From Paramacrobiotus metropolitanus (Eukaryota > Tardigrada > Eutardigrada > Parachela > Macrobiotidae), in contig NW_026570264.1 in assembly GCF_019649055.1 (NCBI RefSeq), positions 62,001 through 126,000 on the forward strand: a DNA stretch of 64,000 nt. The letters are read 5' to 3'. The notes under the pieces were generated by a model, which saw only the letters and a list, made by a program, of their open reading frames with translations, had not been told where the DNA came from and ran no database searches. The position numbers and the translations under genes are program-made. Below, in pieces: positions 7,611 to 32,386 of this stretch (its first letter is position 1; each line of letters begins with the position of its first letter).

Positions 7611-7614
7611 GCGT
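7611..7614. repeat. Target-site duplication GCGT (left)
   Basis: GCGT directly flanks the giant LTR element here and at 32387-32390. The paralogous empty site near 38555-38558 carries a single GCGT. Confidence 0.8.
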
Positions 7615-8005
7615 TGTCAGATATGACACAGAAGCAGATGGAAAATGGGGCTAATAGCCTTTATTGTGAGAACAATAAAGCAACAACAAAACAAAAACCA
7701 ACAGAAAACCCGATGTGGGAAAAAGCTGTGGAAAAAAGTGCCTGCAGTGCGCTAGCTAGGAATCGTGATAATGATTCCGCGTGCTGCCGGTGTGCAACAG
7801 CTGATGCTGCAAAGCACGGAATCGCCCGTAGGCGCTGGGCTCCACCCCCAAGAGTGCAAGGAAATGCGCTGATTGGTCAGCGTAGACAAAGTGTACGCTG
7901 AGTAAGCAGCGTAATGTAGCGGCACGAATGGCGTTGCCATGTGCGGGCGGGCGACAGAGAAAGCCACGAGAGGTGTCTACCGCCTCGAGTGAGCGGTCTC
8001 TGACA
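7615..8005 (-). repeat. 3' LTR of giant element
   Basis: 391 bp; the same length as the copy at 31996-32386, with 4 substitutions and no indels. On the minus strand it holds a CCAAT-box-like GACCAATCAGCG, a G-rich GGGGGTGGAG, and ACAATAAAGG near its 3' part, a likely polyadenylation signal. Confidence 0.92.
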
Positions 8006-10078
8006 TGCCTCTGGGCGGGAGTGGGAGCTCCTGCGAGCACCTTCCGACTCTGCCCCTGGCCAACCCGGTAGGGTGCCAGGATCCGATACCCGGTAGGGCC
8101 GGATGCCACTTTGTCTCTAAACCCGGTAGGGTCGCTTCCTCCAGACCCGCGGTGCAGTGCACCGAACGGCCGAAATCTGGAGTGCACTCTGGTTGCAGGG
8201 GGTTCCAGTGGGGTTTGAAGGCTTGGTTGGTCGAACAAGTAAAAAAATAAAGTTTATAAGGCTCGTAGGTTAAACATCGAAACAAAAAGATCACAATTCC
8301 GGTGAGAATTAAAGAAAGATCAAAGTTAGAGATCCCACAGCCAATTCCTTTGGTTAATGGCTAAATAAAAACATCATCTTTGGTTAATAAAGTCTAGAAA
8401 AACCAGGTTTGGTTAAAAAAAACTAGACAAAACAAAAGGCTTATTCCGACTAGGTATACCACAGGGCCGCATTTGTCCACGGGGGTCCTAGTCAACGGTC
8501 CGCTTTATCCGATAGGATATGTCTGATCCTGTGAATCCGGGGCGACGGTTCCCAGAGATGTCCACAGGGGTCCAGTAAAGTAAATCCAGCGGTGCGGTGT
8601 ATGGAAGGCACGGTTGCATGCGCAAGGACCGGTTGTCCCCTTCCTGATTATGGTGGACCAAGCCCGGTTGGGCGGTCCATGGTGGGCCAGAGTGATGTCT
8701 CTGGACAGGAGAGGTACTCCTGTGACCGAATTAGTATGCTTGGACCGATTCCGTTTGGATGGCCCATATGGGTCTCTAACTTGGACCGGTTTTGGCCTTG
8801 CATGCCGGTTTGGTCATGCGCCTAGGTCCAAAAATCTTCTAAGTCCAGGAGGGCCATAATGGAAAAATTTCTAAGTCCGAGGACCAAGTGGTGTAATGGA
8901 CCAAACCCGTTGGGGCGGTCCAAACTCGGTCTCTGACATGCTCTGGACCGGGATACAGGGTTCCGGAATGGTATGGCCTTGCTTCCAGCCTTTGGAGGGG
9001 AGTGGGTCCTGTATAACCGGTTTTGGCTCTCCGATGTGGACTTAGTCGCTTTTTGATGAGCCACGTCATTGGACGGGCCAAAAGACTTAGTCGATTTTCC
9101 GACTGTCCGCGGTTGATGGCGGGCCAAATGGACTTAGTCGTTTTTTCGACGGTCCAAGGTGTATGGCGGGCCAAAAGGACTTAGTCGTTTTTTCGACGGT
9201 CCAAGGTGTATGGCGAGCCAAAAGGACTTAGTCGTTTTTTCGACGGTCCAAAGTTGATGGCGGGCCAAAGTTGGTCCGTCTCATTGGCCGTGGGCCATGA
9301 GTTGGCTACCATGTCCGATGAGTCAGGTAGGTTTCCCTGAGACCGTGGCCATAACAAAATTAAGTGGCGTCTGACGAAAACATCAGGTTGGCCGGGCCAA
9401 ACTACGAAAAATTAAGTTGTGGGCGCCGGTAGGCGTTTTCCACAAAGGAGTCGGTCTGCTGACTAGAAGCATCCTCGTTTGGCCTCGGGGCGGTGCATCT
9501 TTTAGATGGGCCTCTGGGCGGTCCGTGGTGAGGATGTTGGACATGGCATGCAAAATGGGCATACCACAACTTCTATGTGGCTCTCTTACTCACTTGTCCC
9601 AGTCGCCTGGTATGGCAGCTAAACTCGTGAGCCAGCTATGGTCGGTTAGACGCATAGTGGGCCTGGTCCAATTTCTATGGGCCAGGACTTGGCCTTGGCT
9701 TGTCGCAACTTGTATGCGGGCCAGGCTGATCCACGGCCTGTCGCAACTTCTATGCGGGCCGTCGCCGCCTTCTGGGCGCTGGATCCTTTCCTTGCCGGTG
9801 AACCAGGCGTTGTGCCAAGTTCGGTCCGGTGGACTCCGTCGGATGGTCTGGGATGGCCGAGCCAAATTCATGGTCCCAGCCGCTAAGCCAGAGCCTATCC
9901 GGGGAATCCGGTTAAGATTCAGGGATTTAGGTCCAGTGAGGTAGACATTACATGGCCGTAAGCCACGTTTGTTGGGCGAGGGTAACAACCGTTGGATTGC
10001 ACCCATCATGGTGTTCGAGTCCGGTTTCAGGGGATGTTGGTCCGTTTATAGGGCCAACATGAAGGAATGGCCGTTGGC
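8006..10078 (-). other. 3' noncoding region of giant element
   Basis: About 2 kb between the last accessory ORF and the 3' LTR. It has no convincing coding frame; the minus-strand frame at 9590-10009 (139 codons) shows no domain. It is dense in GGCC/GGTCC words. The sequence next to the 3' LTR (minus-strand CAGAGGCA) is a poor polypurine tract, unlike most LTR elements. A TTTGGTTAA word recurs at 8349-8420 and a 47-bp tandem repeat lies at 9083-9270. Confidence 0.6.
9083..9270. repeat. 47-bp tandem repeat, four units, each with a GTCG/CGAC hairpin
   Basis: Units start at about 9083, 9130, 9177 and 9224. Each holds GTCGTTTTTTCGAC (first unit slightly diverged), a perfect 4-bp stem around a T6 loop, then GGTCCAA and GGCGGGCC-type words. 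It lies in the presumed 3' untranslated region of the giant element. Confidence 0.8.
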
Positions 10079-12042
10079 CTATCCCTGCCCTCCTTGTCCG
10101 GTTTGGTCGCCGTCGCCCAACCCAGTGTTGAGTGGGTCGACGACGCTTTCCTCCATGGCCGCCAATTCCTGTTCTGTCAGGTTTTGTTGATGTTGGCTGG
10201 AGTTGCTGGCCGGCCGGACTTCTTGGTCTGGTTGGACGGCCTGGGTTTGGACATGTGCGGACGATTCTGTTGAGGACCGTTGGGTACGGAACTTCGTTGG
10301 AAGTTTCTTTGTCGCCGTCCGGTTAACGAACGCTTCCGCACCGTCGTCGAAGTCCGATGGCTGTTTATAGCGGTAATCTTTGGCGCGGCTCCTGTAAATG
10401 TTCAGGGCGCTTTGGATCTTGACTCCCGCTTCGATCTCGTGGATCTGGTTTCCCAGGAGGGCCACTTGGGTCAATAGCCGAGGGACGATTTTCACTTGCC
10501 GGTAGGCAACTTCCAGTTCCCAATGACAGTGTAGTGGCCAAGTCTGGCGGCAAAGATGCGTATCAGCGTGCCATTATAGGAATAGGTTTGTGTCGCGGGG
10601 TCGTCCTTATGATCGGCCGGCTTGCATGGGATTTCTATGGCCGCTCTGCAAGCTGCAATGATGAAACTGGCGTTCGCGTCCGGTAGGACAAACTGAGCCA
10701 GGTATTTGACGACTTCGAGTTGGTCGTCCTTAATGTGCAGTTGGCACAAGTCGTTCCAGTCTGGTCTGGTGATGGGCTGTCCAAGTAAGTTCACGTCCGT
10801 GATGCTCGATAGAGCATTTTCACGGACCATCGGGTAGCCCTCGCGGTTCTGTATGTGCTCCGTCATGTTAAAGTCACGGGGCCAATCTTTCCTCTGCATT
10901 TCCATTTCAAGTCCGGACCGGGTGACGAAGGTTTGTAAATTCTGGACCATGGCATCGACTTGGGCCCATCGATCCCTGGGGTATGGGATGGCCCTCATAA
11001 TGTAATCCGTCACCTCCCGTTGGGGAAGTGGTCGGATGTTAATGCCTTGGTCCTCAGCATACTTATATGGATCGAAGTCCGTGGCACTAACGCTTGCGCT
11101 TTGTCGGGCCGGTGGGTCCGACGACGGCGGTGCGGGCTCCGTTTCCATCGGTATCTGAATACTGATGTTGTGGGCCACCGAGCTGACACTTCGTTCGGGT
11201 CGCTTGGTGGACTGAGCGACTACCAGGTTGGACTCCGTCTCGTTTCGCTTCCCGGGTGATGTGCGCGGTTGGCGCTCGGGCTGGCTACGGCTTTGGCGTC
11301 CACTTTGGTCCTGGTTACGGCTCTGGATCTGGTGACGTAAGTCGTCTGGGTTCCGCGGTAGCGGTGCCAGTGGCGTGCGCTGTTCAGTGCGCGCTGGCTG
11401 GTATTGGCCTTTCAAGGCGTCCAGCAATCCACCTTCCATCAGCTGTCGGGCCACCTGGTCAACCATAGCTTTGTTGATGTTTTCCAGGATCGTTTTTTCG
11501 AACCCCTGGTTGTATTCCATGGGTATGAGCAACTCGTATCCGTAGGATCGAGAGCCTGATGATGGCCGCTGATGGTCGTAATTTCTCGGGGCGGCCGTTA
11601 GGCCACGCCCTGAGGACTGGTCAGATCCTGAGTTGCGGGATCGACGGTCCCGGTCCCGCTCGTCCTTCCGTTCTCGAGCCGATTGGCTGAGTGGAAGAAT
11701 CGGGGTTCCAGTACTGCACCAGCCAGGTTGTCGGGCGCCACTACGTTGCATGTAGAGATCGTAGATTTCTATTTGCTCATGGTCCCTCAGTAGGGGAATC
11801 AGGTGGCTTCCGTCGCGGCTGGTCATGTGTATATATGCGTCGAAATTGCCTCTCACCACTTCCAGGTAGAAGCAGTAGGCTCGTTCGATCTCGTCGCAGA
11901 AGCCCGGCCGCAGGTGGTATGCGCAGGGGAACAGCTCCCGTGAGGAGTTGTCCCGGCGATGAGGGTGTGTCATATTATCGCCGCTGTTGCGTCTGCAGTC
12001 CGAGCATCGCGGTTCATATTTCTGCTGCGGTGTAAGTCCCAT
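10079..12042 (-). CDS. Accessory ORF 3 of giant element (10492-12042 continued, after a shift, by 10079-10495)
   Basis: A 516-codon ORF followed, with a 4-bp overlap in another frame, by a 138-codon ORF. The switch falls at the end of a well-conserved-looking segment, so one ORF of about 650 residues broken by a one-base indel is likely. The N-terminus is Cys/His-rich (RCSDCRR, FPCAYHL, GFC, AYC), suggesting a zinc-binding module. A charged Arg/Ser linker and a Gln/Arg-rich part follow. A folded C-terminal region spans about residues 350-516, and the tail is acidic and Gln-rich. No signal peptide or membrane segment. No known family recognised; not env-like. Confidence 0.6.
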
Positions 12043-12232
12043 TCTCCGTGGTAACAGAAATGAAACTTGCAGAATGAGGTTAAGTCCACTTTCTATGACG
12101 GGTCCCTGTGATAATTACGCCCTATATTTTACGTCCCTATGATTTTACTTGTGATTTGTTAACTAGGCTTTTCTTGCCCGGTGAATTATATCGGGATCAC
12201 CCCCTAGACCCTATGCGAATTCTACGCCTAGG
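12043..12232 (-). other. Short spacer between accessory ORFs
   Basis: 190 bp, AT-richer than the ORFs on either side. No motif recognised. Confidence 0.4.
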
Positions 12233-15066
12233 TCACTGATGGTGAGTACGCCGCTTCTTCTTGGACTTGGTTGAGGCCAAGGAGTCGGATTCGGTGGGAC
12301 GAGGGCCGTAACGATCCGGTGGGATGTTATGTTGTCTGTACCACTGCTGGGCCTCGGGCTCGTCGACAGTTTGCTCGAGCCATCCTTCGTTTAACATCTT
12401 CCGTACGACGTATCTGACGTCCTCGCAAATAGGGTACAACCCGCTAGGGCGGCCCTGGTTCGGCATATATGCTATCCCATCGATAAGTTGTGGATGGTGC
12501 GAGATGACGTTCAGATCGTATCGGCCCAGGAGCTGGTTGGCTATTTCGCCTCGTGTAAGGCCTAATGGGTGCTGAGTGGTGGTCAGCACTGTGAGGACGG
12601 CGTTACGCCATTCCCAGTAGCCTTGAGGAGCCTTATCCACTTTTTCCGGTGGGAAAGTGTAGAAGATCTGCGTATTGGGCAGATGGGTCCGTAATATAGC
12701 TCCTTCATGGTAGGCCATCTGTATGTACTTCATCACTTTGGTCTTGGTCAGCGGTGGGCCATTCCATTTCTTAATGAGTTGGAAGGCCAAGCCCCTGTAG
12801 CAAGGGTTGTACCCGTTTGGGACAACGCCTTTAAGGCCGCCTTAATATATGCCCATCGCTTATCGGAGTTGGAGATCCGCGGCTTTTTGGAAGGATCTCC
12901 GCCGGGCCATTTCCTGGCTACCTTTGGTGTTGGTGGCGAGACATAGTCGATCCGTGGTATGGCCGGGCATGGGTCAGGTAAAGTCCATGGAATCTCACCG
13001 TCATCTGATTCCGGTGAGGTCGAGTCGCGCGTCCTTTCCCGTTCGGGCGATGCAGCGCTTCCACTTGGCTCAGCGTTGTCCACGCTGGCTGGGCTTTCTT
13101 GGCTAGCGCTCTCTGCGCTGCCTTGTTCCTGGTTGGCGCCTTCTGCGCCACCCTGGTCCTCCATGTCCTGGTCACCGTTAGGTGGCTGATTCTCGTCACC
13201 GGGTGGGGTTTCCATGTCATGGTCCGGTGGGAGGTCCATGGTAAGTTTACCAGGGCTTTGGTCATCATCATCATCAGAGTCGGACTTTTGGGACTCCATG
13301 GTTTGGTCCTGGTCCGGCTCTTCTTGTTCTTCGTCCTCTGAGTCCTCCGGTTGTGAGTCCTCAGAGTCCGAATCGCTTGGCTGCGGTGAGGGATCTTTTT
13401 TCCCTCTTTTCTTTGTAGCCGTGGCCTTTCGGCTCTTTGTGGATGTGGCCGATAAGGCTGGCGAAGGAGGTCTGGACCGGCCAGCTGTGTTAGGCAGTGA
13501 CACTGTGTCCCTGGGCACAGGCCGAATTCCGGCTGCGCGCATCTCGTCCTCCGCTTCTTGGCGTGCAGCCAATTCTCTTCTTGTGACGGATGGTCGAGGA
13601 GGCTTTTCTACCGGCAAGTTCTTTGGACCAGGCAGTTTGGCCACTTGGGAGATCAAGTATGCCTCCTTGGCTCTGCCGGTCAACTTGTCTTTCGGCGGTC
13701 CAACAGCTTTCTTTCTATCCGGGTCCCATTTTGTGCCCACGTCGTGTGACACGTACAGAGACCGTTGGGTCTTCTGCGGGATGAACCCGGGGATGGTGAA
13801 GCGGATTGCTTCCGCCCGGTAGGCGTTGGTCGTCTCCAAGGTTCCGTCCTTAACCAGCGCTAACAACTCGTCGAGTATGATGCGCTCCAGTTCTTCCAGG
13901 TCACCCTCTCCTTTATAATAGAGAGCATTAAGGGTCCTGACGATGTCAACTAAATTGGAGCCTTTTGGGTTATGCAGGTAAGCGATGGTCCTGCATATCT
14001 GGTGGAAGGGGTAATCCCGGCTACGGGAAAGCCCTGCTGGCCGATGAGGCACGTGAAGCTCCATCATGCTGGTCCAGTCACGGTGTGTGCGGACCAGAAG
14101 TCCCATGTCCAAAATAAGAGTTACTACCCGCCGCATAAAGGGTGCCGTTAGTACACGGTCCGCTGGCGGTAGCCCCCTGAATTCTTCTCCATGTACCATT
14201 CTGGCTCGGAGAACTCGGACGAGACACTGGTACATGTCTCTTCCTGTTGTGCGTCTCATGATCCTGGCCGCTGCCACCCATTGGCGCACATATGGACCCG
14301 TTGGGATCTCAATGTGCGTGGCCTCCGGTCCAGGGTCCGGGAGCTCAGCTTCGTCGTCCCCAGGCGAGGGGAGCATTGTCTCCTCCGAAGGCGGTTCGCC
14401 TTCGGGGACTGGCTCGTATTCCTCTTCTTGCCATGGACGATATGTTGCTGGCCCTTTAGACTTGTCCTTACTGTCCGATAGGACTTGGACATCTTCATCG
14501 CCTGATAGCCGTTTCTCGAGCTGGGCGATCTTGGCCTCGTGAGTTTTCTTGTCCTTAGCCGCTTGTTTCTTCTGGCGGTTCCTTTCGGCCTCTGGGTTTG
14601 ATGTTGGCGGAGGTGTGGTCGCCTGGCTCCCACTCGGTTGAGGGGAGTTTGGACGAGAGGCCGGTTTGGCCCTCTCTGGGTTTTTTGCTTTTCTCGGCTG
14701 CTTACTCCGTTGGGAGTTTGCTGAGTGAATTACACCCATGCCAAGCGCAAAGTTCTCCATTGTCCCTGTTGCGGGGAAGGTTATTGGACGGCCAAAAGGT
14801 ATGTCGTCGATACTAGCAGGCATGTTCGTCAGTATTATCGGAGCGGCAGCCGTTGGCCCTGTTCCGGACTGACTTTGGCCTGCCGATTCTTGTGCCGACA
14901 AAGTGGCCTTCGGTGGCTCCTCCGGTTGAACTAGTTTTGGCTGTGGCTCTGTGGCCACAGGTCCAGACGGAGAAGTATCCATTGGCTCTGAGGCCGCTGG
15001 TGGTTGTGCCTGCGTCTTTGGCGGTACCACAGTTGGTGGCTCATTTGACGACAGGGTTTCAGCCAT
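12233..15066 (-). CDS. Accessory ORF 2 of giant element, winged-helix-like (12748-15066 plus 12233-12790)
   Basis: A 772-codon ORF overlaps a 185-codon ORF by 43 bp in another frame. The last residues of the first (GAWPSNSLRNGMAHR) look out of frame, while the second frame continues a helical domain (FQLIKKWNGPPLTKTKVMKY), so one protein of about 945 residues with a one-base indel near 12780 is likely. N-terminal third is Pro/Ser-rich with a Lys-rich helix. Then come segments resembling winged-helix folds: about residues 245-330 (MYQCLVRVLRARMVHGEEF), 340-420 (ICRTIAYLHNPKGSNLVDIV), and two in the last 185 residues (LTTTQHPLGLTRGEIANQLL). Between them lies an acidic Ser/Asp/Glu stretch. It ends with a basic KSKKKRR. 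The winged-helix call is inference from helix pattern only. Confidence 0.6.
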
Positions 15067-22534: not shown

Positions 22535-25500
22535 TACACTACGGCTAAGCATTCCCATTCGGTCACGCCGTAGTTCTTCTCAGCTCCATGTGGGACACGA
22601 CTTGCGTAGGCAATTGGCCTCGAGTCCTGGCTGAGTATGGCTCCGATGCCAGCGCCACTTGCATCGCATTCGATGGTGGTCTGTTTGGTCGCATCGAATT
22701 TGGCCAATATTGGGGCTTCCGTTAGGGCCTTTTTAATTTCATTGAACTCTGCGGTGTGGGCGTCGGTCCAGTCGTTCTTCACTGAACTTTCCTTCCGCAG
22801 GAGTTCATACATCTTGGAAGTCTTCTGGGCGTAGCCCAGAATGAACTTCCGGTAGTAGTTAGCGAGTCCAAGAAACGAGCGAAGTTGACGCTCGGTCTTG
22901 GGCGGTAGCTTCTCGGCGATGGCCGCTACCTTCTCGGGATCAGTATGGACACCGTCCTTGCTGAGGATGTGTCTAAGGAATTGGAGTTTTTCCATTCCAA
23001 ATTCGCATTTCGACGGTTTTATTGTGAATCCGGCGTCTCTGAGGCAAAGGAGCGTGTTTCTAAACGCTTTCCTGAATTCCTCGAATGTCTTGCCGAAGAA
23101 TATCACGTCGTCGATGTATGCGAAGACGCCGCCTTGTTTGCGGGCCGGCGCCATAATCTTGTCCATTGTCATTTGGAATGTGGCTGGCCCGTTGCAGACG
23201 CCAAACGGCATTCGTTTGAACCGGAACATCCCTTCTGGAGTCACGAAGGTAGTGTAGTCCATGGACGCTGGGTCCATAAGGATTTGCCAGAATCCGGACT
23301 GACAATCTACCTTGCCGTAATAGGCGTTGCCTGCACATTGATCCAGAAGTTCGTCTGGATTGGGCAATGGGTAATTATTCTTCTTGGTCACCGAGTTCAG
23401 CTTTATGTAATTTATGCAGAACCGGGTGCCCATGGTCCCGTCGCCGTTTTTCTTCGAAGCGAGGACCACTGGGAAACTCCACGCTGCCATGGACGATTCA
23501 ATTACGCCTTGGTCCAACATTTCTTGGACGTGCTTGTTTATGAACTCTCGTCCCTTCCAACTCGTTCGGGTTGGGTTCATTTTAATTGGTGCAGCGTCGC
23601 CAACTTCTATGACGTGAGTCACTCCTTTGACGTCACCGTAAGGCTTTTTGGACGTCGGGAATATGGCCCGGAGTTCCCATAAGTCCTGACGGAGTAGAGC
23701 GGTCTGCTCTTCGGTCAGGTGATCGCCGAAGTGTGCATTAGCGATCTGAGCGCGGATTTCGCGCTCCACTTCAGGATCTTCCTCTCCGGTTTGGAGGGAA
23801 TTGATCTTGGCATAATCTTCCTCCGAGATTTTCTCGTATGGCTCCACTTGGCCCATGTTAACTCCTTTCCGGAGTATATGGGGCTCTTTGGAGTAGTTTG
23901 ACACCAGTCTGGTGAAACTGTTGCCATCATGCTGGACTGGTCCGTCGAGCATGGCCAGACTCCGTTTGGTGTCTTGGCTTCCGAGGTATATGAATTTCTG
24001 TCTCGGGTCGACGGGAAAGTCAATGCTGACTTGGACCGGGGTGATGGACTCCGGTGGGAGCTCCACTTTTACAGTTGCCCGGACCATAGCATGGTCGTTA
24101 ATAGCGCGGTACCGATTTGGATTATTCCCTGCCGCTTTTGGCCATGGTAAGGCGTCGGCATTGGGAATTGACCAATCTACGCCGTCCTCCTTGATGTCTG
24201 GCTCATATATGTCGCTGTAGTACATGTGGCCAACTTTTGCACCTTTGCGGAGGATTTGGTCGCGTCGGGACTTATTTTGGACCTGAATCCACGCGTGTTC
24301 GCTGTTTCGAGTTTGGACCTCTGCTTCGATCGGTATGACCAAGCGGTGTGGTCTTCTCAGCGATTTAAAGTGGATTGGCCGTCCCGGGTCCATAGTCCGA
24401 TAGGACCGGACCTTAATCCAGCAAGTTGAGTAGGCTGGTAAGGTGTACCGCTGATGAACGAAGACGACCTTTCTCTCTTCCTTGAGGCAGTCCGTTGGAC
24501 GTTCGGTCCGCAATTTGCGGATTACCGGTGCTTCGGCTCGGAGTTGGAGAATTTCTGTGTCCTCTTCGTCATCACTTGACTCCTCCGATGATTGGTTATC
24601 GGAGTCCGTGTCCGGTGAGTCACTAGAGCTCTGGACGTCCGAATCGGTAGACTCGGGTTTGTCGTCTTGCTCGGGTTTTGGCTTGCCATTGTCCTCGTTA
24701 GAGGTTGGCGCGCCGCCGGCCACTGTTGGTGCCGGTTTGGTCACGAGATCCACTTCTTGGATCTCTGGCGCTCCGGTTGCGATTTCCTGTTTTTCAGGTT
24801 CGTCCGGTCCCGCCAAAGTGGTTGGACGGCTCCCGTTGGGGAGTGGCGAGGCTGGTCGGCCTTTTGCCCAACGTTGAGATGAACGGGTTTGTATGGCCCG
24901 TATCACCGCTTCAACGCCGTCTCCACATAGAGGACAAGTCAATTGGACTTCCTCTGGTGAAGGGTCCTGCTCATTCTGGCTGGTGTCCCTTCGATGGCCC
25001 CCCTGTTCTCGGTGTGGGCCATCCTTGAAGCGCACTCTTGTCGCTATATGCGGTGCAGCTTCCGGCAATGGTTCCGGTATAGTCCTGACGTTAGTCAGGC
25101 TCAAGTCATATTTTGGCCATATGCTGACGGTTAAGCCAGGGTGTTGGGCCATTTGTCTTCGAAGCGTTATAATGTCATCGAAGAGATCCGTGCACATCTT
25201 TTGGAGTGCTTTCGGCATTTCCATGTGGTACTCTCTGTATTCCCACACTAGGGCTAGACGTTCGTCCTCCCATAATGCTCCTTCTTGAACCAAATCGTCC
25301 AATTCTTGGGCGAATGGTCCGTATTGTGCGGCAATTTGCGGCCACGTTAGTGGTTCGCCTTTTTCTTCAAGCCAGCCCTCTTCTAGGGCAAGGATCCGGC
25401 CAGCGCGGTATTCGAGGAAATTTCTAACCCCAGTAAACCAAGTTTTGTAGCGCTGGACCAGTTTCTCCTTAATTTCTCTGTCAGGCACCGGCCGTTGGCC

Positions 25501-26727
25501 CGGTGCCTCTGGTATCGGGATAGTCTTTACTATCCCGTGATTTGGTTTGGGTATGCCTGCGCGGAATTGGGTCATGTAACGCTCGATTGCGTTATGGACG
25601 CGCAGCTCCCATATGAGGCTTTCAATGGTGTCCAGGCATTCCCAACAGGTAGAAGGAGAACTTTTCGGGTGATCAAGCCGATTAACTCTCACTTCATCAT
25701 CGGGTCCCGGTGCCCCTGGTATCGGGATAGACTTTACCGCGTCCCAAACGATTTCTTTGTTTGGCTTGAGGATGAACGTAAACTTGGAGTGGAGGTAGTC
25801 ACAGCCAAGCAGTACGTGCACGTCCGTTAACGTCGGTTGGACGAAGAACGTGTGGTGGCTCTTGTATCCCTGCAGTGTCACCGGTACGGTGCAGCAGTGG
25901 GAGACCACGAAGGCGGTTTGTCCGCCGACACCAAGGATTTTGGTGTTCCGTCCTAATGGCTCTGTTTTGATACCATTGGCGGTGCAGAATTGCTGGCAGA
26001 TGAGGGATGTCTCCGCTCCAGTGTCCAGCATGGCGAGCGTGTGGACTGGTCCAATTTGGACTTTGTGTGTCCATGCTCTGACGGTCTTCGGTTTTCGATT
26101 TTCGTCGAGGCCAACTGTCACTTCCCGCATCACCGGTACTATGGGGATTAGCGACACTGGTCCTGGATCGTCAGGAGCGTAGTGAGGTGAAGGTGGCTCC
26201 TGTTGGACAGACTCTTCCTGTGGTGATTTTTCCGATACCCGTAGGGTCGAAAACATACTTTTGGTGTTACGGAAGGTCCGTGAGCTATTTATGGTTCGCA
26301 CCGTTGGTGTGGTGCCGAGGGGTTGTCCACGGTTCTGGAGCTCACAGATCCGAGGAGTAGACGCCTCGAGAGGTTCGGTTGTCCAGTCTTTTAGGGATCC
26401 GACCTCGCTGTCCGTATCTTGTACGGACCATCCTTCCGGTGCGCTGTCGGAGGATGTGTCTGACGCCAATTGTGGATACGTCATATTCGTGGTGCGACGT
26501 CTCGCTTTGCCACGTGTTCGGTTGGCCTTTAGGTTGGTTGAGGCTCCGAGTTTTGGGGATCGGTTGGCCTTGGGGTTAGTTGAGGCTCCGAAAATCGACT
26601 TGGTCGCCTGCAGTGCGACTGTCGGCCTGGCATCACTTTTAGAGCCAGGTGGCTTAGGCGCAGGTTTGGCGCAAAGCCTGGATCCGCTGGTAGGCTGTTG
26701 AGCCATATGGGTTAGTTTGGGATCCAT
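22534..26727 (-). CDS. pol: Pol: aspartic protease, reverse transcriptase, start of RNase H
   Basis: A 1397-codon ORF. Aspartic protease at about residues 215-320 (AMLDTGAETSLIC, then VLLGCDYL). A long spacer of about 700 residues follows, with an acidic Ser/Asp/Glu patch and two similar segments (NKSRRDQILRKGAKVGH and NYSKEPHILRKGVNMGQ) of the type that often precedes RT. RT at about 1045-1300 shows TRFCINYIKLN, the KVDCQSGFWQI motif, MPFGVCNGPATFQ and the YIDD active site (residue about 1204). RNase H starts at TIECDASGAGIGA (about 1355) and stops at WECLAVV. Gag is in a different frame. The sequence is Ty3/gypsy type. The spacer makes this much longer than a usual Ty3 protease-RT. Confidence 0.9.
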   Translation of the reverse strand: MDPKLTHMAQQPTSGSRLCAKPAPKPPGSKSDARPTVALQATKSIFGASTNPKANRSPKLGASTNLKANRTRGKARRRTTNMTYPQLASDTSSDSAPEGWSVQDTDSEVGSLKDWTTEPLEASTPRICELQNRGQPLGTTPTVRTINSSRTFRNTKSMFSTLRVSEKSPQEESVQQEPPSPHYAPDDPGPVSLIPIVPVMREVTVGLDENRKPKTVRAWTHKVQIGPVHTLAMLDTGAETSLICQQFCTANGIKTEPLGRNTKILGVGGQTAFVVSHCCTVPVTLQGYKSHHTFFVQPTLTDVHVLLGCDYLHSKFTFILKPNKEIVWDAVKSIPIPGAPGPDDEVRVNRLDHPKSSPSTCWECLDTIESLIWELRVHNAIERYMTQFRAGIPKPNHGIVKTIPIPEAPGQRPVPDREIKEKLVQRYKTWFTGVRNFLEYRAGRILALEEGWLEEKGEPLTWPQIAAQYGPFAQELDDLVQEGALWEDERLALVWEYREYHMEMPKALQKMCTDLFDDIITLRRQMAQHPGLTVSIWPKYDLSLTNVRTIPEPLPEAAPHIATRVRFKDGPHREQGGHRRDTSQNEQDPSPEEVQLTCPLCGDGVEAVIRAIQTRSSQRWAKGRPASPLPNGSRPTTLAGPDEPEKQEIATGAPEIQEVDLVTKPAPTVAGGAPTSNEDNGKPKPEQDDKPESTDSDVQSSSDSPDTDSDNQSSEESSDDEEDTEILQLRAEAPVIRKLRTERPTDCLKEERKVVFVHQRYTLPAYSTCWIKVRSYRTMDPGRPIHFKSLRRPHRLVIPIEAEVQTRNSEHAWIQVQNKSRRDQILRKGAKVGHMYYSDIYEPDIKEDGVDWSIPNADALPWPKAAGNNPNRYRAINDHAMVRATVKVELPPESITPVQVSIDFPVDPRQKFIYLGSQDTKRSLAMLDGPVQHDGNSFTRLVSNYSKEPHILRKGVNMGQVEPYEKISEEDYAKINSLQTGEEDPEVEREIRAQIANAHFGDHLTEEQTALLRQDLWELRAIFPTSKKPYGDVKGVTHVIEVGDAAPIKMNPTRTSWKGREFINKHVQEMLDQGVIESSMAAWSFPVVLASKKNGDGTMGTRFCINYIKLNSVTKKNNYPLPNPDELLDQCAGNAYYGKVDCQSGFWQILMDPASMDYTTFVTPEGMFRFKRMPFGVCNGPATFQMTMDKIMAPARKQGGVFAYIDDVIFFGKTFEEFRKAFRNTLLCLRDAGFTIKPSKCEFGMEKLQFLRHILSKDGVHTDPEKVAAIAEKLPPKTERQLRSFLGLANYYRKFILGYAQKTSKMYELLRKESSVKNDWTDAHTAEFNEIKKALTEAPILAKFDATKQTTIECDASGAGIGAILSQDSRPIAYASRVPHGAEKNYGVTEWECLAVV

Positions 26728-26810
26728 TGGGGTTAGTAACTGTACAGAAGTTATGTCCGGCGGTTTAGGTTCCGGTCTTAGGTCAGGTGAGTTGCCGATA
26801 CTCCCCGACC

Positions 26811-27881
26811 TTAGGCGTTTCCCGCGGTTGGGCTGGCCCGGCTAGGGCCACCGCCGCTGTTGCCATTTGGCTTTACCAGCTGGTCCGGTATGGGTGGTAG
26901 CGCTGCCCTTTCATTGGCTGGCGTCTGGTATCCCTGTTTTGGACCATTCTGCCGGTTGCCGCCACCGGACCCACTTCCTGAGCCAATGGACTGCCTTCGT
27001 CTGCCTGTCCCCCCATTACCACGTGGTGGTCTGGGTTGTTTGGGTGGCACTAAGCCGAGGCGGTTAGGATTGGCTGACCCGGTAGGGTAGCCTTTCTGAT
27101 AGCGATTTCGCCAATCCAAATACCATTTCCGGTTTGGATTTTCGCATAATGGCCTGTTTGCATAGCCACAGCCGTCGGTTGCGTGGTTTCCTCACAGGCA
27201 GTGGTTGCAAGTGATAATCCCATCTTTGGCCCATCGCTCGAACATGCGCTCGACTCGGTCGATGTACATGTCCTCTTGTCTGCGGGCCTCTTCGGGGCTC
27301 AGAGTCTGGCGTTGGCCACTCTGGCCTCCCGGGCTTCGGTTTTGTCCTCCAGGGCTGTTGCCGCTTTGGTTTCCGCTAAAGCTGGCATTTTGGCCTTTGG
27401 AGAACTTGCCCTTTGGTCCTCCGCCGCTGTTGCCCTGGCTGTAGCCATAGTTGCCCTGGTTTCGGACCTGGCCATAGCCGCCACTACCGCCGTTGGGCGG
27501 TGTAGACCCACGTTGTGGGGAGGCTAAGTTCAAGGCCGCGATGGCGGCGTATGTTGCCTCAATTCGGGCTTGTGTAGCTTGCGGGGGATAGAGTGCCGGT
27601 TGTTGTGGTACGACTTGGGCTGGTGGCGTTTGTATGGCCGTTCGGATTGTTGGGTATCCGCGGCTTGCCTTCCCTTCGTACTCCGGTTTTCCCATTGTGT
27701 ACTGCCGGACATAGCCCCGGAATTCTGCTGGTGACTTTAGTATCCGGATGTCCAGAGCGCGGCGCAGTTCTGGCTCATTCACATTCTCTCTCAAGAAGTG
27801 AAGTGTCATGGTGTCGTCCAAGCCAGCGCGCGTCTGGAGAGTCAGCATGGCGTCGTAATACTGCTCAGGGGTTTCGGTCAA
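26811..27881 (-). CDS. gag: Gag continuation: capsid C-terminus and zinc knuckle (27192-27881, 26811-27191)
   Basis: In the same frame as the large gag ORF but separated from it by TAA (27891-27893), and itself split by TGA at about 27192-27194. The first part (TPEQYYDAMLTLQTRAG, then TMTLHFLREN) is capsid C-terminal-like. A Gly/Gln/Asn-rich linker follows, then a CCHC knuckle (C-x2-C-x4-H-x4-C) whose fifth residue from the second Cys side is the TGA codon, probably CGA originally. After the knuckle comes a basic, Pro/Gly-rich tail ending at 26811. Zinc knuckles bind element RNA during packaging. Confidence 0.75.
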
Positions 27882-27890
27882 GTGTTGGTA

Positions 27891-30800
27891 TTACCGATGG
27901 GCGATTTCTCCCATGGCAGTGGCCTGCTGATTATCATCGCCATATCGAGTGGCAAACTTCTGGAGCCACTCTTCCACTGTCCAGCCGTCCTCGTCTTCTC
28001 GATTGGCTTGGCCAGTGTACCATTCTTTTACAGGGTCCGATAGGGCCATGTAAATGCGGCTCATGAAGTCCGGATCTGGTTTGTTCAGATCGGATGACTG
28101 CTTACAGATCCGTCGGACCTGTGCAAGCCATCCTTTCACCATTGTTTTGTTGCCGTCAAATTTTGGCAACTCGGTGCGGACTTGAGCTCTCGCGTTAGCT
28201 TTTCCCATCTCTTGGGCCATTTCCTTGATTTGCTCTCTGGTTGAGAGAGCTGGACTGACCGGTGGTGATGGGGCCGGTGTTGGCTGCTGTGGTATTAGCG
28301 GCACTTGCTGAGGTTGGGCCCACACTGGTTGGCCCGGTACGATCTGGATAGCCCCGTTGGACGCCATCCATGCGTATGCTCCATTCGGGAGCTGGACCAA
28401 CATGGGCGCATTTTGGCCTTGACCTGGTTGAGCCGCTGGTCCTGGTGGCATGGCCGCTGTTGGCGGTATGCCTGGTGGTTGGGGCACATTTTGGCCCGTG
28501 GGCGTCGTTTGGCCCATCTGTGGCTGAGCTTGGCCCGTTGGGGCTGCCGCCGTGATAGGAGGGCCAAATAGTTGGCCTACTAGTGGTTGTTGCACCGTTG
28601 GTGTACCACTTTGGCCTCCCATCTGTCCTTGCATGGCCGATGGCCCGAACATTGGGCTCAGCGGGTTGGTCCGGTTTGGATCAGCGCCGCTGGTCTGAGC
28701 CTGGCTTGTGGCCGGATGTGGACTAAAGTTGAAGTCCATGTTCGGGAATATCGTTGGGTACAAGGACGGATACGATGGCTTTGATCCAAAGTAGCTGTGG
28801 CTGGGTATCGCCTGACTTGGATCGAAGCCTAGCCCACTTAACGTAGACGGATGAGTCTGCGTTGTGGGCGTCACTATCGTCGTTGGACTGATAGTGGCGG
28901 TTGTAGTGACCGGGACTGGTGGTGGCGGCAGTGTTATTGTCGCCGTTGATGTTCCGCGGTCCACCGGGCTGGGAGGCGCAGGTATGGTTGGCCCCTTTGG
29001 GGGATCTCCAACCAGTGGTCCTTCCACAGCCATGTTCACTTGATAGTTCTGCTGGTGATACACTGGCTCTCGGTAGAAGCGTTGGCCCTGCCGCAGAGCC
29101 TCGTCGACTTTTTCTTGTCGACGTTGTGTATCCGAGTCTGGAAAGGTATGGTAGGACGGTGGTTCTGCGGACAACTCGGAGTTGATATCTGCGAGATGTG
29201 ATTTCTCCGCATCTAAGCAGGCGTTTTCCGTGCTTAGCCTTTCCAGTTCCTCGTTCATTTCGGTTATGCGTTGTGTGGCCGCCTGGTAGTCTTTGACCAG
29301 GCCGGCATTATTGGCCTCCAAAACGATGATCCGGTCTTGTTGGCCCTGGATCACCTGTTTGGCTTGATTGAAGGCCTGCTCCAATTGGACGAAGTTTTGA
29401 TGCCCAATGGCGCTGTTCTGCTCAAGTTGGACCCGAATGGTTGCTTCGGTGTTGAGCTGGCTCTGGAGGGCAACGATCTGTTGCTGGAGTTGCACGTTCT
29501 GTGCCTCCTTCTGCTGAACCGTTTGGCTCATCAGTCCTCCTTGCTGGATGGTCTTCATGAGATTCTGGTGGCTCTCATAAAGAAGGTTGTATCCATTCCG
29601 CAGACGGTTGATTTCGTCCTGCAGATTGGACAAGTCTTCGGTGAGACGTTTGTTTTCCCTCTGTAGGCGGTCCGCCTCAGAGTCGGTGTCGTCAATGGTG
29701 GTCCGGGCCGCAGCCAAGTCGTCCCTGGCTTTGGCCAGCTCGGTCCTCGTAGAGGTGAGCAGGGCTTCAAGGCCCGCCACAGCCGTTTCTAGGCTGTGGA
29801 TTGTCCTATTGAGCTGGTCTCGCTCAGCATTAGGACATGGTGACAACTTGAGCTGGGTTAGCTCAAGTTGGGTCTGGGCCAGTATGGCCGAGACACGTTT
29901 AACCTCTGCGTCCGATTGGAACGCAAGGTCTTTGTGTCTGCAGATCTCGTCCTGCATCCATCGTTCAGATAGCAGGGAAGCTTCTGCGATGTCCGCCAGC
30001 TGTTTGGTCAGGTCCCGTACTGTGGTCCGAAGTTGGTCGACTTCGTCGAGTTCCTCGGGCCGGGTTGCCTGGATCAGCTTTGGCGGGCTGACGTTGGCGC
30101 GGCCTGTGTCCCAGGAGGGCTGGTTAAGGTCCATCCTGGCTGTGGCCCTGTTAAGTTGGGCCAGATCCACAATTGGCTCTCCGTCCGGTCTGGACGGGCC
30201 GAGCGCGCCGATGACGTCATTGGTCGGCGATGGCGTTGTGTAAGTTGGGCCATCGTCCTCAAACATGAGTGGCGACTGACTTGCGGGCTGTTGGCCCTGG
30301 TCTTGTGCCTTTGGACCAGCCTTTTTGGCTTGGCCCTTTGCCTTGCGTCCACCTTTGGCCACCGTTGGTGCCTCAGGTTGGATCTGGTCCGAGCCCGGTA
30401 GGGTTGGACGTGCTGTCAGATCCTGGACATCAAGGTTGGACCGGGCCAGGTTGTTTGGCTCTGGTCCATCGGTGCGTGTCTTGTCCTCACCTGTGGCTGC
30501 CGTTGGCGCCGCAGGTTGGACTTGGCCCGGACCAGGTATGGCCGGTTGGTGCGCCAAGTCCCGAGGGACACTGTTGGCCTGGGCCGTCCTATCGGCGCCA
30601 GGTTGGTTGTCCAGAGGCTGGTTGGCCTCGGACAGTTCGTCGGATGCCTCCTGGAATGTGTCGTCCCGGGTGGCGTCCAGACTTTCGTCGCTGGTTTCCA
30701 AATCGGCCGGCAGGATTTGTCTGTCCCGCCTGGCTTTGGCCTCGACTGAACTCGTTGAGCCGGCCGAGTTTGGCTCGTCTGGTTCAGAACCGCTCTGTTT

Positions 30801-30974
30801 GGCCCTGCGGAAACCGTAAGTTCCCGGTGGGTCGCGTGTGGCATAGTTCTTCCCCAGTTGCTTCTTGTATTCGTTAGGTTGGCGCCCGTCCATAGGACTG
30901 AGCAATCTCCGTTGGAGTTGCTCATGGCTGGTGTATGGCATCACCTTGGCCAAGGCGCTTTCGATTTGGCCCAT
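27891..30974 (-). CDS. gag: Gag, N-terminal 1027 codons with long coiled coil
   Basis: Starts MGQIESALAKVMPYT; Gly2 in an MGQ context could be myristoylated as in retroviral matrix proteins, which is inference. A disordered Ala/Gln/Pro segment spans about residues 50-300. A coiled coil follows at about residues 305-595 (LQRENKRLTEDLSNLQDEIN and similar heptads), ending at EPPSYHTF, which contains a PPxY. A Pro/Gln-rich region comes next, then a capsid-like segment from about residue 930 (ELPKFDGNKTMVKGWLAQVR, then YMALSDPVKEWYTG). Usual Ty3 gags are 250-450 residues, so this is several times longer. An in-frame TAA ends it inside the capsid. Confidence 0.85.
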   Translation of the reverse strand: MGQIESALAKVMPYTSHEQLQRRLLSPMDGRQPNEYKKQLGKNYATRDPPGTYGFRRAKQSGSEPDEPNSAGSTSSVEAKARRDRQILPADLETSDESLDATRDDTFQEASDELSEANQPLDNQPGADRTAQANSVPRDLAHQPAIPGPGQVQPAAPTAATGEDKTRTDGPEPNNLARSNLDVQDLTARPTLPGSDQIQPEAPTVAKGGRKAKGQAKKAGPKAQDQGQQPASQSPLMFEDDGPTYTTPSPTNDVIGALGPSRPDGEPIVDLAQLNRATARMDLNQPSWDTGRANVSPPKLIQATRPEELDEVDQLRTTVRDLTKQLADIAEASLLSERWMQDEICRHKDLAFQSDAEVKRVSAILAQTQLELTQLKLSPCPNAERDQLNRTIHSLETAVAGLEALLTSTRTELAKARDDLAAARTTIDDTDSEADRLQRENKRLTEDLSNLQDEINRLRNGYNLLYESHQNLMKTIQQGGLMSQTVQQKEAQNVQLQQQIVALQSQLNTEATIRVQLEQNSAIGHQNFVQLEQAFNQAKQVIQGQQDRIIVLEANNAGLVKDYQAATQRITEMNEELERLSTENACLDAEKSHLADINSELSAEPPSYHTFPDSDTQRRQEKVDEALRQGQRFYREPVYHQQNYQVNMAVEGPLVGDPPKGPTIPAPPSPVDRGTSTATITLPPPPVPVTTTATISPTTIVTPTTQTHPSTLSGLGFDPSQAIPSHSYFGSKPSYPSLYPTIFPNMDFNFSPHPATSQAQTSGADPNRTNPLSPMFGPSAMQGQMGGQSGTPTVQQPLVGQLFGPPITAAAPTGQAQPQMGQTTPTGQNVPQPPGIPPTAAMPPGPAAQPGQGQNAPMLVQLPNGAYAWMASNGAIQIVPGQPVWAQPQQVPLIPQQPTPAPSPPVSPALSTREQIKEMAQEMGKANARAQVRTELPKFDGNKTMVKGWLAQVRRICKQSSDLNKPDPDFMSRIYMALSDPVKEWYTGQANREDEDGWTVEEWLQKFATRYGDDNQQATAMGEIAHR

Positions 30975-31985
30975 GGTATTGGGACTTGAAAAATTTCTTT
31001 GGTCTTGGTCCGGACCGGAACGGTGGGTTGGCTGTCGCTGGTTAGTGCTGGTCAGGTGTGCTAGAGCTTAGGATTAGCGTTAGCTCCCTATGGCCCTAGT
31101 TTACGTTACTGACCAGTGTGATGTCACGTACGAAATGGTCTTGCAAAAGCTCTACGTCACGAGTAGCGTGCCGTGAGCAAAATTCAAAAAACAATATGAC
31201 TCACTACGAGTCTTATAACATGGGGAAGTTTCCCACGTGTTCTGATTGGTCAAATTTTTATGGAAAGTTACCACAGTGACGTCACGCGACTTTTTCGCAA
31301 AAATTCCGGCTGGACAAAATGGCGGTTGTTTTTCGCCGATAATTCGTCAAAAATTAGGTAAAAATTTTTCGAGAGTTCTGTTACACTTTTCTAGTGCAGA
31401 ATTTCTCAAGAAATCCGAAAATGCTAGTTTTACGCAAATCGGATAAGCGGTTCAAAAGTTATAGAATTTCAAAATTAGGTTCTACGCGGAAACCTCCAAA
31501 TTGTGAAAGTTCTACGAAAACCTACGACGCCACAGCAGGTCTTACCGGCGGTTTGTTCGCTCCAAACTGCTGCTCCGTCGTTCCTCTTCACCCTCTTCTA
31601 CCGTGAGGGCCGCAGCGCACCCGATAGGGCGTAATGGTGTGTCAGGACCGTACCGAACGCAGTTTTTGCGCCGGGAGCCAAAGCTGCGGGAGGTCTACTT
31701 ATAGACGCTGACCCGTATCAACGCAACCCGGTAGGGTGCTTATTTGGTCAACTGGATCGTACCCAACTCAGTTTTTGAGCGGGGAGCCAAAGCTGCGAGG
31801 GACCTACTTATAGGCGCCGACCCGTATAAATAATCCGTCGCGCAGCAGGCTTCCAATGAAGCCTGTATGATGCAGGAGATGGTGGTCGCGGGATTGCTGG
31901 CCTACTTATAGGCGATCAGCGTAGTTCGACCGATTGTTGCCTTCACTGGGAATCAGAGGTCTCGCAGGAAAGAAAACCGAGCGAG
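30975..31985 (-). other. Leader (5' untranslated region) of giant element
   Basis: About 1 kb between primer-binding site and gag. It holds a degenerate direct repeat of about 76 bp at 31646-31721 and 31755-31830 and three CCTACTTATAGGCG-like words (about 31695, 31803 and 31902). No conserved coding frame. It probably includes the packaging signal. Confidence 0.6.
31646..31830. repeat. Two-copy direct repeat in the leader
   Basis: Copies at 31646-31721 and 31755-31830, roughly four-fifths identical by eye, sharing GGGAGCCAAAGCTGCG and GACCCGTAT. A third partial match (CTACTTATAGGCG) lies near 31903. Confidence 0.7.
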
Positions 31986-31995
31986 TCTGCTACCA
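31986..31995 (-). promoter_or_regulatory. Primer-binding site, initiator tRNA-Met
   Basis: Immediately after the 5' LTR on the minus strand: TGGTAGCAGA, complementary to the last ten bases (TCTGCTACCA) of eukaryotic initiator tRNA-Met. The match stops there, which is short but typical of several yeast and insect elements using the same primer. Confidence 0.85.
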
Positions 31996-32386
31996 TGTCA
32001 GATATGACACAGAAGCAGATGGAAAATGGGGCAAATAGCCTTTATTGTGAGAACAATAAAGCAACAACAACACAAAAACCAACAGAAAACCCGATGTGGG
32101 GAAAAGCTGTGGAAAAAAGTGCCTGCAGTGCGCTAGCTAGGAATCGTGATAATGATTCCGCGTGCTGCCGGTGTGCAACAGCTGATGCTGCAAAGCACGG
32201 AATCGCCCGTAGGCGCTGGGCTCCACCCCCAAGAGTGCAAGGAAATGCGCTGATTGGTCAGCGTAGACAAAGTGTACGCTGAGTAAGCAGCGTAATGTAG
32301 CGGCACGAATGGCGTTGCCATGTGCGGGCGGGCGACAGAGAAAGCCACGAGAGGTGTCTACCGCCTCGAGTGAGCGGTCTTTGACA
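31996..32386 (-). repeat. 5' LTR of giant element
   Basis: 391 bp, partner of 7615-8005. On the minus strand it begins TGTCAAAGACC and ends ATATCTGACA; it carries the same CCAAT-like and AATAAA signals. Confidence 0.92.

What the first reader, a model, noticed from the sequence alone, without database searches (positions are those of the whole stretch)
7615..32386. A 24.8-kb Ty3/gypsy-type retrotransposon with about 10 kb of unexplained accessory ORFs
Seen: two 391-bp LTRs, GCGT duplications, iMet primer site, giant gag, full protease-RT-RNase H-integrase, and after pol a block (10079-19811) of large ORFs on the same strand with no env-like signal peptide or membrane segment. Known: Ty3 elements are usually 5-10 kb; Ogre (plants) and Burro (planarians) are giant relatives. 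Inference: a distinct giant lineage whose extra proteins may act in particle assembly, nuclear entry or chromatin targeting.
Basis: partly seen in the sequence, partly recalled or inferred. Interest (0 to 1): 0.9.

Follow-up and report, generated by a model that had tools for sequence, protein, structure and literature searches.

The report
Giant tardigrade retrotransposon with chromatin-protein gene
A 24.8-kb virus-like jumping gene in a water bear carries, besides the usual genes, a huge third gene whose end part recurs at hundreds of places in that genome, and whose protein is predicted to grip DNA or chromatin and would likely help the element work inside the nucleus.

Summary
In detail: an LTR retrotransposon (7615-32386, minus strand; 391-bp LTRs, GCGT duplication, iMet-type primer site) of Ty3 gene order, in the tardigrade Paramacrobiotus metropolitanus. 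It is no nested insertion: composition is uniform, and five other LTR pairs 23-25 kb apart hold the block.

The "accessory block" is two genes. In five other copies ORF3 is one open frame of about 2,540 codons; ORF4 follows. Both are under purifying selection (dN/dS 0.23; 0.19 from one pair; wrong frames 1.2-1.4). The end module of ORF3 or a relative follows pol in at least three more families: 38 of 74 and 19 of 28 pol hits, and 62 of 150 integrase hits, have it downstream on the same strand (controls 0-3); of 39 integrases taken as other lineages, none. Splice-site-like signals precede ORF3 and ORF4 in families A, B and a 13.3-kb non-autonomous partner, which lacks RT and the module.

The module best fits tandem winged-helix, linker-histone-like domains, but weakly: no pol-linked member passes a Pfam cut-off, and AlphaFold failed. 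Most likely role (inferred): a spliced, nuclear, chromatin-binding scaffold. Function is untested; the window copy is defective.

The parts
7615..32386 (-). whole LTR retrotransposon, family A, a defective copy
   Evidence: LTR pair, 4-bp duplication, composition, gene order
31996..32386 (-). 5' LTR
   Evidence: 387/391 identical to the other LTR
7615..8005 (-). 3' LTR
7611..7614 (.). target-site duplication GCGT, left
32387..32390 (.). target-site duplication GCGT, right
31986..31995 (-). primer-binding site TGGTAGCAGA (initiator-Met type)
   Evidence: families B and C have TGATAGCAGATCG and TGGTAAGCAGATCG at the like place
31540..31548 (-). predicted 5' splice site CCG|GTAAGA in the leader
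   Evidence: kept in 4 of 5 family-A/partner leaders; GGTAA 450, 433 and 453 nt after the LTR in A, B, C; the score alone is not significant (536 of 2000 shuffles) and C has a better-scoring site elsewhere
31086..31296 (-). conserved leader block, internal-promoter-like (CCAAT, TATA-like, TGACGTCA, TCAGT)
   Evidence: 79.6% over 113 nt to family B, 74.6% over 134 nt to C; motif names recalled
26811..30974 (-). gag, 1,387 codons with two premature stops in this copy; coiled-coil-like region, one CCHC knuckle
26817..26823 (-). GGGAAAC, predicted -1 frameshift site just before the gag stop
   Evidence: GGAAACGCCYAAGGTCG seen in families A, B, C; the first G is T in the C copy
25789..26064 (-). 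aspartic protease
   Evidence: PF00077 E 2.1e-5, over its cut-off
22975..23445 (-). reverse transcriptase
   Evidence: PF00078 E 1.7e-24
22390..22770 (-). RNase H, interrupted by one stop codon
   Evidence: PF17919 9.1e-24 and PF17917 on both sides of the stop
21342..21799 (-). integrase: H2C2 zinc-binding domain and core, with a frame change
   Evidence: PF17921 7e-11 over cut-off; PF00665 8.5e-7, below cut-off
20519..20542 (-). AT-hook-like RGPGRPRK in the integrase tail
   Evidence: RGRPRKK in family B; motif recalled
19793..19822 (-). predicted 3' splice site of ORF3 (CTAAC, pyrimidines, CAG)
   Evidence: same arrangement in family A copies, family B and the 13.3-kb partner; family C not examined
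12233..19778 (-). ORF3, about 2,530 aa where unbroken; four frame pieces here
   Evidence: dN/dS 0.227 over 435 pairs
13669..14313 (-). middle conserved module of ORF3, winged-helix-like
   Evidence: 37-94% identity to the first of 9 copies of families A, B, C; PF00538 sub-threshold in 3 of 9
12314..12867 (-). C-terminal conserved module of ORF3, tandem winged-helix-like
   Evidence: 151 genome matches; RPA_C 21.0 bits, cut-off 22.6, in 1 of 13; profile match to the D module
12046..12084 (-). predicted 3' splice site of ORF4; ACCACAG elsewhere, altered in this copy
10079..12042 (-). ORF4, Cys-rich N-terminus, two frame pieces here
   Evidence: dN/dS 0.19 against one other copy over 350 codons; relatives in family B and the partner by eye
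8006..10078 (-). 3' region without a recognised gene, with 47-bp tandem repeats (9074-9269)
   Evidence: 90-94% identical in the 13.3-kb partners

Best explanation
This is a Ty3-type LTR retrotransposon of the tardigrade Paramacrobiotus metropolitanus whose third gene, ORF3, encodes a protein of about 2,530 residues that is predicted to bind DNA or chromatin through winged-helix modules, and that would likely be made from a spliced RNA and act in the nucleus as a scaffold tying the element's copies to host chromatin. Shown: two LTRs, gag, pol, ORF3 and ORF4 in one element; ORF3 unbroken and under purifying selection among other copies; its C-terminal module, or a relative of it, downstream of pol in at least three further families and not found downstream of 39 other integrases of the same genome. 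Inferred: the winged-helix fold, the spliced messages for ORF3 and ORF4, the -1 frameshift between gag and pol, and the chromatin-scaffold role, in which the coiled-coil-like and disordered middle would join element complexes while the winged helices and the AT-hook-like integrase tail hold chromatin.
For: One unit: uniform composition; 6 of 10 same-strand LTR pairs within 40 kb, the window's among them, span 23.1-24.8 kb and hold the ORF3 module. One gene: 5 of 50 matched stretches lie in single frames of 2,540-2,559 codons. Selection: 30 loci, 435 pairs, median dN/dS 0.227; every fourth pair (109) gives 0.223 in frame, 1.24 and 1.43 in the other frames; 54% of changes at third positions. Lineage trait: 38 of 74 RT hits have the module 8.1-12.5 kb downstream (1 of 74 upstream, 0 of 74 opposite strand); 19 of 28 pol hits of the LOC129592891 type have the D module 4.9-6.4 kb downstream (0 and 0); 62 of 150 integrase hits have the D module downstream, mostly at 6.0-6.6 kb (3 and 0); of the 39 best-scoring integrases 0 have either module. 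Fold: Linker_histone is the hit in 3 of 9 middle modules of A-C (best E 0.082) and in both pol-linked D modules scanned (E 0.009, 0.067), all below cut-off; L071, a 35-37% identical relative of those D modules, passes the cut-off (25.7 bits against 22.4); the A-C C-terminal profile aligns with the D alignment at score 27.3, best of 100 column shuffles 18.3. Splicing: CTAAC + pyrimidines + CAG just before the ORF3 ATG and ACCACAG before ORF4 in families A, B and the partner; GGTAA at like distance in the leaders of A, B, C.
Against: No module that I could tie to pol passes a Pfam cut-off: A-C, D members L072 and L073 16.7 and 13.9 bits. The two sequences that do pass, L071 and L070, are not tied to pol: none of the 22 listed entries most like L071 lies downstream of the 28 pol hits, L070's place is not in either module list, and in the genome-wide scan L071's place scored 21.0, below cut-off. 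The profile match to D has a hhalign probability of only 17% (E 0.0015), to host H1 under 5%. PDB profile searches gave nothing credible; both single-sequence AlphaFold runs failed (pLDDT 37.5, 40.6). ORF3 of family A has net charge -20, unlike a histone. [ST]Px[KR] sites are not enriched. The leader donor is no better than chance by score, one of five leaders has lost it, and in family C another site scores better. In the family B copy the ORF4 start position reads ACG. One of the 39 other integrases has a sub-threshold linker-histone hit 2.6 kb downstream. No RNA, protein or location data. Winged helices also bind RNA or protein.
Confidence: 0.4

Rival explanations
1. ORF3 and/or ORF4 are nuclear RNA regulators, as CERV of the nematode Ty3-type element Cer1: they carry the unspliced genomic RNA out of the nucleus.
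For: Same position after pol and predicted splicing; CERV (517 aa, spliced mRNA) is required for genomic RNA export (PMC10309623, passages); a genome with conserved splice sites would need such a factor; a Cys-rich ORF4-like gene is kept even in the 13.3-kb partner.
Against: No sequence relation was tested; ORF3 is five times larger; the weak domain hits point to DNA/chromatin binding.
Confidence: 0.23
2. ORF3 is a structural scaffold of the particle or a condensate for an unusually long genome, with coiled coils and disordered repeats doing the work; the C-terminal modules only anchor RNA.
For: P-rich, weakly hydrophobic stretches make up much of ORF3; Gag is also giant with coiled-coil-like Pfam hits.
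Against: The parts that still align between families are the islands with the modules (27-44% identity); frames of about 1,630-1,850 codons suffice in the D families.
Confidence: 0.17
3. ORF3 works against host silencing by displacing the host's linker histone or mimicking it.
For: Weak linker-histone-like hits; one strong H1 match in the genome (104.9 bits).
Against: No direct evidence; acidic protein; sub-threshold in the pol-linked modules.
Confidence: 0.1
4. The block is a separate mobile element nested in an ordinary Ty3 element, or a captured host gene of one copy.
For: No Pfam match over a cut-off in the block of this copy.
Against: Uniform composition, present in other full-length copies, tied to pol across families, purifying selection.
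Confidence: 0.02

Closest known systems
Burro giant gypsy-type elements (planarians)
   Same: Ty3-type pol, internal region up to 25 kb, accessory coding capacity (PMC6431247, passages)
   Different: In Burro the extra domains sit mostly inside one 4,873-aa polyprotein with gag and pol (Smc, BIR, ankyrin, BCL2-like, Env-like), besides accessory ORFs; here the giant extra gene follows pol, has its own ATG and ends in winged-helix-like modules
Cer1 (C. elegans) with CERV
   Same: Ty3/gypsy element with a non-env gene after pol made from spliced RNA (PMC10309623, passages)
   Different: CERV is 517 aa and shares reading frame with gag in exons 1-3; ORF3 is about 2,530 aa; splicing here is only predicted
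Ogre / Retand elements (plants)
   Same: Large Ty3-type elements with additional ORFs; Retand ORFs with a putative DNA-binding domain (PMC11963269, passages incl. abstract)
   Different: Most Retand ORFs there are antisense; Ogre's size is mostly LTR; no winged-helix gene is named in the passages seen
Bdelloid rotifer LTR elements with diverse ORF3
   Same: ORF3 types that are not env (PMC5408684, abstract)
   Different: Those are esterase, exonuclease or env-like
Chromoviruses
   Same: Ty3-type elements that reach for chromatin by a domain of their own (recalled)
   Different: Their chromodomain is in integrase (recalled); Pfam finds none here

Membership tests
Ty3/gypsy (Metaviridae) | order protease-RT-RNase H-integrase between LTRs | tested here: met
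   on window pieces; family B read by eye in the same order
Ty3/gypsy (Metaviridae) | TG...CA LTRs, short target duplication, tRNA primer site | tested here: met
   4 of 4 copies with both flanks show a 4-bp duplication
Ty3/gypsy (Metaviridae) | polypurine tract before the 3' LTR | tested here: inconclusive
   only CAGAGGCA, also in a second copy
Ty3/gypsy (Metaviridae) | RT inside the Ty3 clade of named reference lineages | tested here: inconclusive
   the 117 non-host proteins listed (of 5,010 hits) are 32-45% identical, many named as Ty3-type Pols; no curated reference panel, so the place within Ty3 is open
Chromovirus | chromodomain in the integrase tail | tested here: not met
   no Pfam family up to E 1 in 20084-21019; AT-hook-like motif instead
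Errantivirus / env-bearing gypsy | env with signal peptide and membrane segment after pol | tested here: inconclusive
   ORF3 of family A has no membrane-grade window (max 1.31), but family C reaches 1.77 inside the middle module; signal peptides and ORF4 hydropathy not computed
Linker histone H1 (PF00538) | globular winged-helix domain over Pfam's cut-off | tested here: not met
   families A-C and pol-linked D modules below cut-off; two relatives not tied to pol above it
Linker histone H1 (PF00538) | short, strongly basic protein | tested here: not met
   about 2,530 aa, net -20 in family A
Burro / Ogre lineage | shared ancestry of pol | not tested
   no Burro or Ogre sequence was at hand; one search holds database neighbours only

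The most novel reading that the evidence does not exclude
A whole radiation of Ty3 retrotransposons in one tardigrade genome is built around its own linker-histone-like protein: a giant spliced ORF3 that packs or pins the element's DNA on host chromatin, the first retroelement lineage defined by a self-encoded H1-like chromatin protein.
Probability: 0.2. Interest if true: 0.85.

Novelty: new variant of a known kind. Interest (0 to 1): 0.6.

Why it matters
Here a giant accessory gene has stayed with one Ty3 lineage through several families, is kept by selection, and was not found behind 39 other integrases of the same genome. If the modules bind chromatin, it is a ready system for how retroelements without a chromodomain reach chromatin, and for how an element of nearly 25 kb expresses four genes. 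It also shows that RefSeq holds such a gene only as 'uncharacterized' (LOC129594469, 2,979 aa), so it may be misread as a host gene of an animal studied for stress tolerance.

Tried and rejected
Nested insertion or chimera: rejected. Env: no support in ORF3 of families A and B; one hydrophobic stretch in C. Myristoylated Gag (MGQIES) as a lineage trait: rejected, families B and C start MSGREN and MSKPRE. CDK-site cluster: not enriched. Telomere repeat GATGGGTTTT (recalled, as a tardigrade marker): 0 matches, neutral. Host named instead by a table in PMC8277472 (passages: 170.48 Mb, longest scaffold 4,484,941) and by RefSeq proteins of P. metropolitanus on contigs of exactly the length of C1 (4,484,719) and C68 (795,613). 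Protein search with ORF3 of family A (residues 1740-2530): 6,529 candidates, none at E 0.01; with the family C frame: 1 of 7,973 scored, the host's own LOC129594469. IMG/VR: 10 pattern matches, none confirmed. Phage collection, with 7615-12000 only: none. Rfam: none in the window at gathering scores. Structure searches were not run because both models were too poor. Literature, open PMC papers only: 'Paramacrobiotus' with 'retrotransposons' 0 papers; three of 'ltr retrotransposon', 'linker histone', 'winged helix', 'encoded by the retrotransposon' 0; 'gypsy', 'retrotransposon', 'histone H1', 'additional open reading frame' 0; 'LTR retrotransposon', 'winged helix', 'accessory' 1, by title unrelated; tardigrade with gypsy and retrotransposon terms 3 and 4, by title unrelated. 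Searches were seen as listings. PMC11071193 on tardigrade transposons (passages) names Gypsy once and never 'giant' or Paramacrobiotus.

Full report
WHAT IS THERE. The window is G000:C44:62001-126000 of a 169.8-Mb, 533-contig genome. RefSeq proteins of Paramacrobiotus metropolitanus lie on contigs of exactly the length of G000 contigs C1 (4,484,719) and C68 (795,613), and the TYO assembly paper gives 170.48 Mb and a longest scaffold of 4,484,941 (PMC8277472, passages). The host is this tardigrade. The element runs on the minus strand, 7615-32386: 391-bp LTRs with 387 identical positions, GCGT on both sides, a primer site TGGTAGCAGA at once after the 5' LTR. The four copies with both outer flanks in hand show a perfect 4-bp duplication.

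GENES. Gag is 1,387 codons (30974-26811) with two premature stops here; it has a coiled-coil-like region and one CCHC knuckle, itself cut by one of the stops. Pol follows in the -1 frame across GGGAAAC, a motif whose surroundings (GGAAACGCCYAAGGTCG) are kept in families A, B and C; frameshifting is inferred. Pfam finds protease, RT, RNase H and the integrase zinc-binding domain over cut-off, the split integrase core below it. The integrase tail carries an AT-hook-like RGPGRPRK (RGRPRKK in family B). The 'accessory block' is two genes. ORF3 starts at ATG 19778 and ends at 12233; in this copy it is split in four frame pieces, at five other places it is one frame of 2,540-2,559 codons. ORF4 starts at ATG 12042; it begins with a Cys-rich motif (CxxC ... 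C) that by eye is also seen in family B and in the partner element. The last 2 kb before the 3' LTR hold no gene that I recognise, and 47-bp repeats.

THE BLOCK BELONGS TO THE ELEMENT. GC is 0.52-0.58 with AT skew -0.18 to -0.33 from 10001 to 32000, against 0.38-0.48 and -0.11 to +0.05 outside. Among the 40 LTR matches scored (of 236 candidates) there are 10 same-strand pairs within 40 kb: 6, the window's among them, span 23.1-24.8 kb and hold the ORF3 module (5 also the RT), two span 13.3 kb, one 12.0 kb with the module but no RT, and one of 27.6 kb is empty and looks like the gap between neighbours.

SELECTION. Over the 1,101-codon piece 15059-18364, 30 of the 50 matched stretches were fetched; all 435 pairs gave a median dN/dS of 0.227 (5-95%: 0.165-0.306). 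In 109 of these pairs the other two frames gave 1.24 and 1.43, the true frame 0.223; third positions hold 54% of the changes. ORF4 between the window and one other copy: 0.19 over 350 codons, one pair only. The pairs include dead copies.

A LINEAGE TRAIT. Three families were read in part: A (window), B (C73) and C (C205, C68), with gag, pol and ORF3 in this order; ORF4 was seen in A and B. RT of A and B are about 80% identical while the ORF3 C-terminus is 38-39%. ORF3 has three islands shared by A, B and C (A residues 1208-1565, 1788-2088, 2267-2509; 27-44% identity over the pairs), with no other match to A at E 1e-3. With the pol of LOC129592891 (call these elements D): 19 of 28 have a related module 4.9-6.4 kb downstream, controls 0 and 0. 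With the integrase zinc-binding family: 62 of 150, controls 3 and 0. Split by score after seeing it: 60 of 89 at 77.0-78.3 bits, 2 of 21 at 78.4-79.9, 0 of 39 at 80 bits or more, 0 of 1 below; the 39, which I take for other lineages without a tree, have neither the A-C nor the D module within 16 kb. One of them has a sub-threshold linker-histone hit 2.6 kb downstream. Misses include contig ends and places beyond the capped lists. The two module lists come to 281 distinct places, a lower bound for module copies, not for whole elements.

THE FOLD. The signal is weak and I mended it on checking. Families A-C: Linker_histone in 3 of 9 members of the middle module (best E 0.082), RPA_C (a winged helix, recalled) in 1 of 13 of the C-terminal module (21.0 bits, cut-off 22.6). 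Pol-linked D modules L072 and L073: Linker_histone 16.7 and 13.9 bits, cut-off 22.4. Over the cut-off are only L071 (25.7; 21.0 in the genome-wide scan) and L070 (25.3). L071 was the query that found the D modules (35-37% identity, E about 1e-25 for the best), but none of the 22 entries most like it, and not L070, could be tied to pol. Of 54 linker-histone hits other than H1, 12 overlap the L071-found list, none the A-C list, and the seven over the cut-off are in neither. The A-C C-terminal profile matches the D alignment with score 27.3 (100 column shuffles: at most 18.3; hhalign probability 17%, E 0.0015), the middle module with 31.2 (36%, E 0.0004; no shuffles of its own). I therefore hold the winged-helix reading at about 0.65 and linker-histone kinship lower.

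EXPRESSION. Directly before the ORF3 ATG (AACGATG) stands CTAAC, a pyrimidine-rich stretch and CAG in family A copies, in family B and in the partner element; ACCACAG stands before ORF4 in the same three, though altered in the window copy. Family C was not examined for these. The leader has CCGGTAAGA in 4 of 5 A/partner leaders, with GGTAA 450, 433 and 453 nt after the LTR in A, B and C. A donor of this score is found in 536 of 2,000 shuffled leaders, the B and C sites score lower (7.2, 5.7), and C has a better one at 211 nt, so likeness of position and not score is the argument. A leader block with CCAAT, CRE-like and TCAGT motifs is kept at 75-80% between families and may be a second promoter for gag-pol; this is a guess.

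A PARTNER. The two 13.3-kb pairs share the LTRs, leader (85-86%) and 3' end (90-94%) with the giant, carry their own gag (43-48% identity over the matched parts), a scrap of pol from between protease and RT, a 449- or 592-codon ORF with an ORF3-like start and a 259-codon ORF4-like gene; I found no RT and no winged-helix module in them. They look like a non-autonomous partner moved by the giant. That it keeps an ORF4-like gene and only a stub of ORF3 fits a function that can be given in trans, or one not needed for it.

MECHANISM. Committed reading: ORF3 is a nuclear, DNA- or chromatin-binding scaffold made from spliced RNA, which with the integrase tail holds element complexes on chromatin. 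Steps shown: gene, selection, linkage. Steps inferred: fold, splicing, location, binding, role. The main rival is a CERV-like export factor (PMC10309623, passages).

NOVELTY. Giant Ty3 elements (Burro, Ogre) and accessory ORFs after pol (Cer1, rotifers, Retand) are known; a lineage-wide giant winged-helix-like ORF3 was not found in the searches listed under Tried and rejected. RefSeq holds one ORF3 as an uncharacterized 2,979-aa protein. I file it as a new variant of a known kind.

Noticed in passing
window 31086-31296: Leader block with CCAAT, TATA-like, TGACGTCA and arthropod-Inr-like TCAGT motifs, kept in families A, B, C and the partner: possible internal promoter for gag-pol.
   Followed up: partly
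L063-L066 (G000 C27:131075-144397 and C46:349878-363155): 13.3-kb non-autonomous partner with divergent gag, ORF3 stub and ORF4-like gene.
   Followed up: partly
L071 (G000 C56:338501-338977), L070 (C92:252560-252751) and six more places: Linker-histone-like domains in ORFs of 259-1,756 codons, over or near Pfam's cut-off, that I could not tie to any pol: another element lineage or host genes.
   Followed up: partly
G000 C32:1048901-1049065 and C32:1051634-1051807: Sub-threshold linker-histone hit 2.6 kb downstream of an integrase of another lineage.
   Followed up: no
L062 (G000 C205:52000-61999): Family C copy in which RT is cut off and runs in one open frame into ORF3, as if by an internal deletion that kept the frame (by eye).
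   Followed up: no
window 40627-43530: Two adjoining ORFs, the larger (740 aa) with an RVT_1 domain: possibly a non-LTR element.
   Followed up: no
window 35130-35786: ORF with a DDE_1 transposase domain (E 2.8e-17).
   Followed up: no
window 56115-56506 and 62295-62686: Two repeat pairs (77% and 87%) at the same spacing of 6,180 bp: a diverged duplication or unrecognised element.
   Followed up: no
window 23860-24420, within pol: Between protease and RT pol has two similar segments, each with LRKG (at 24252 and 23874); not identified.
   Followed up: no
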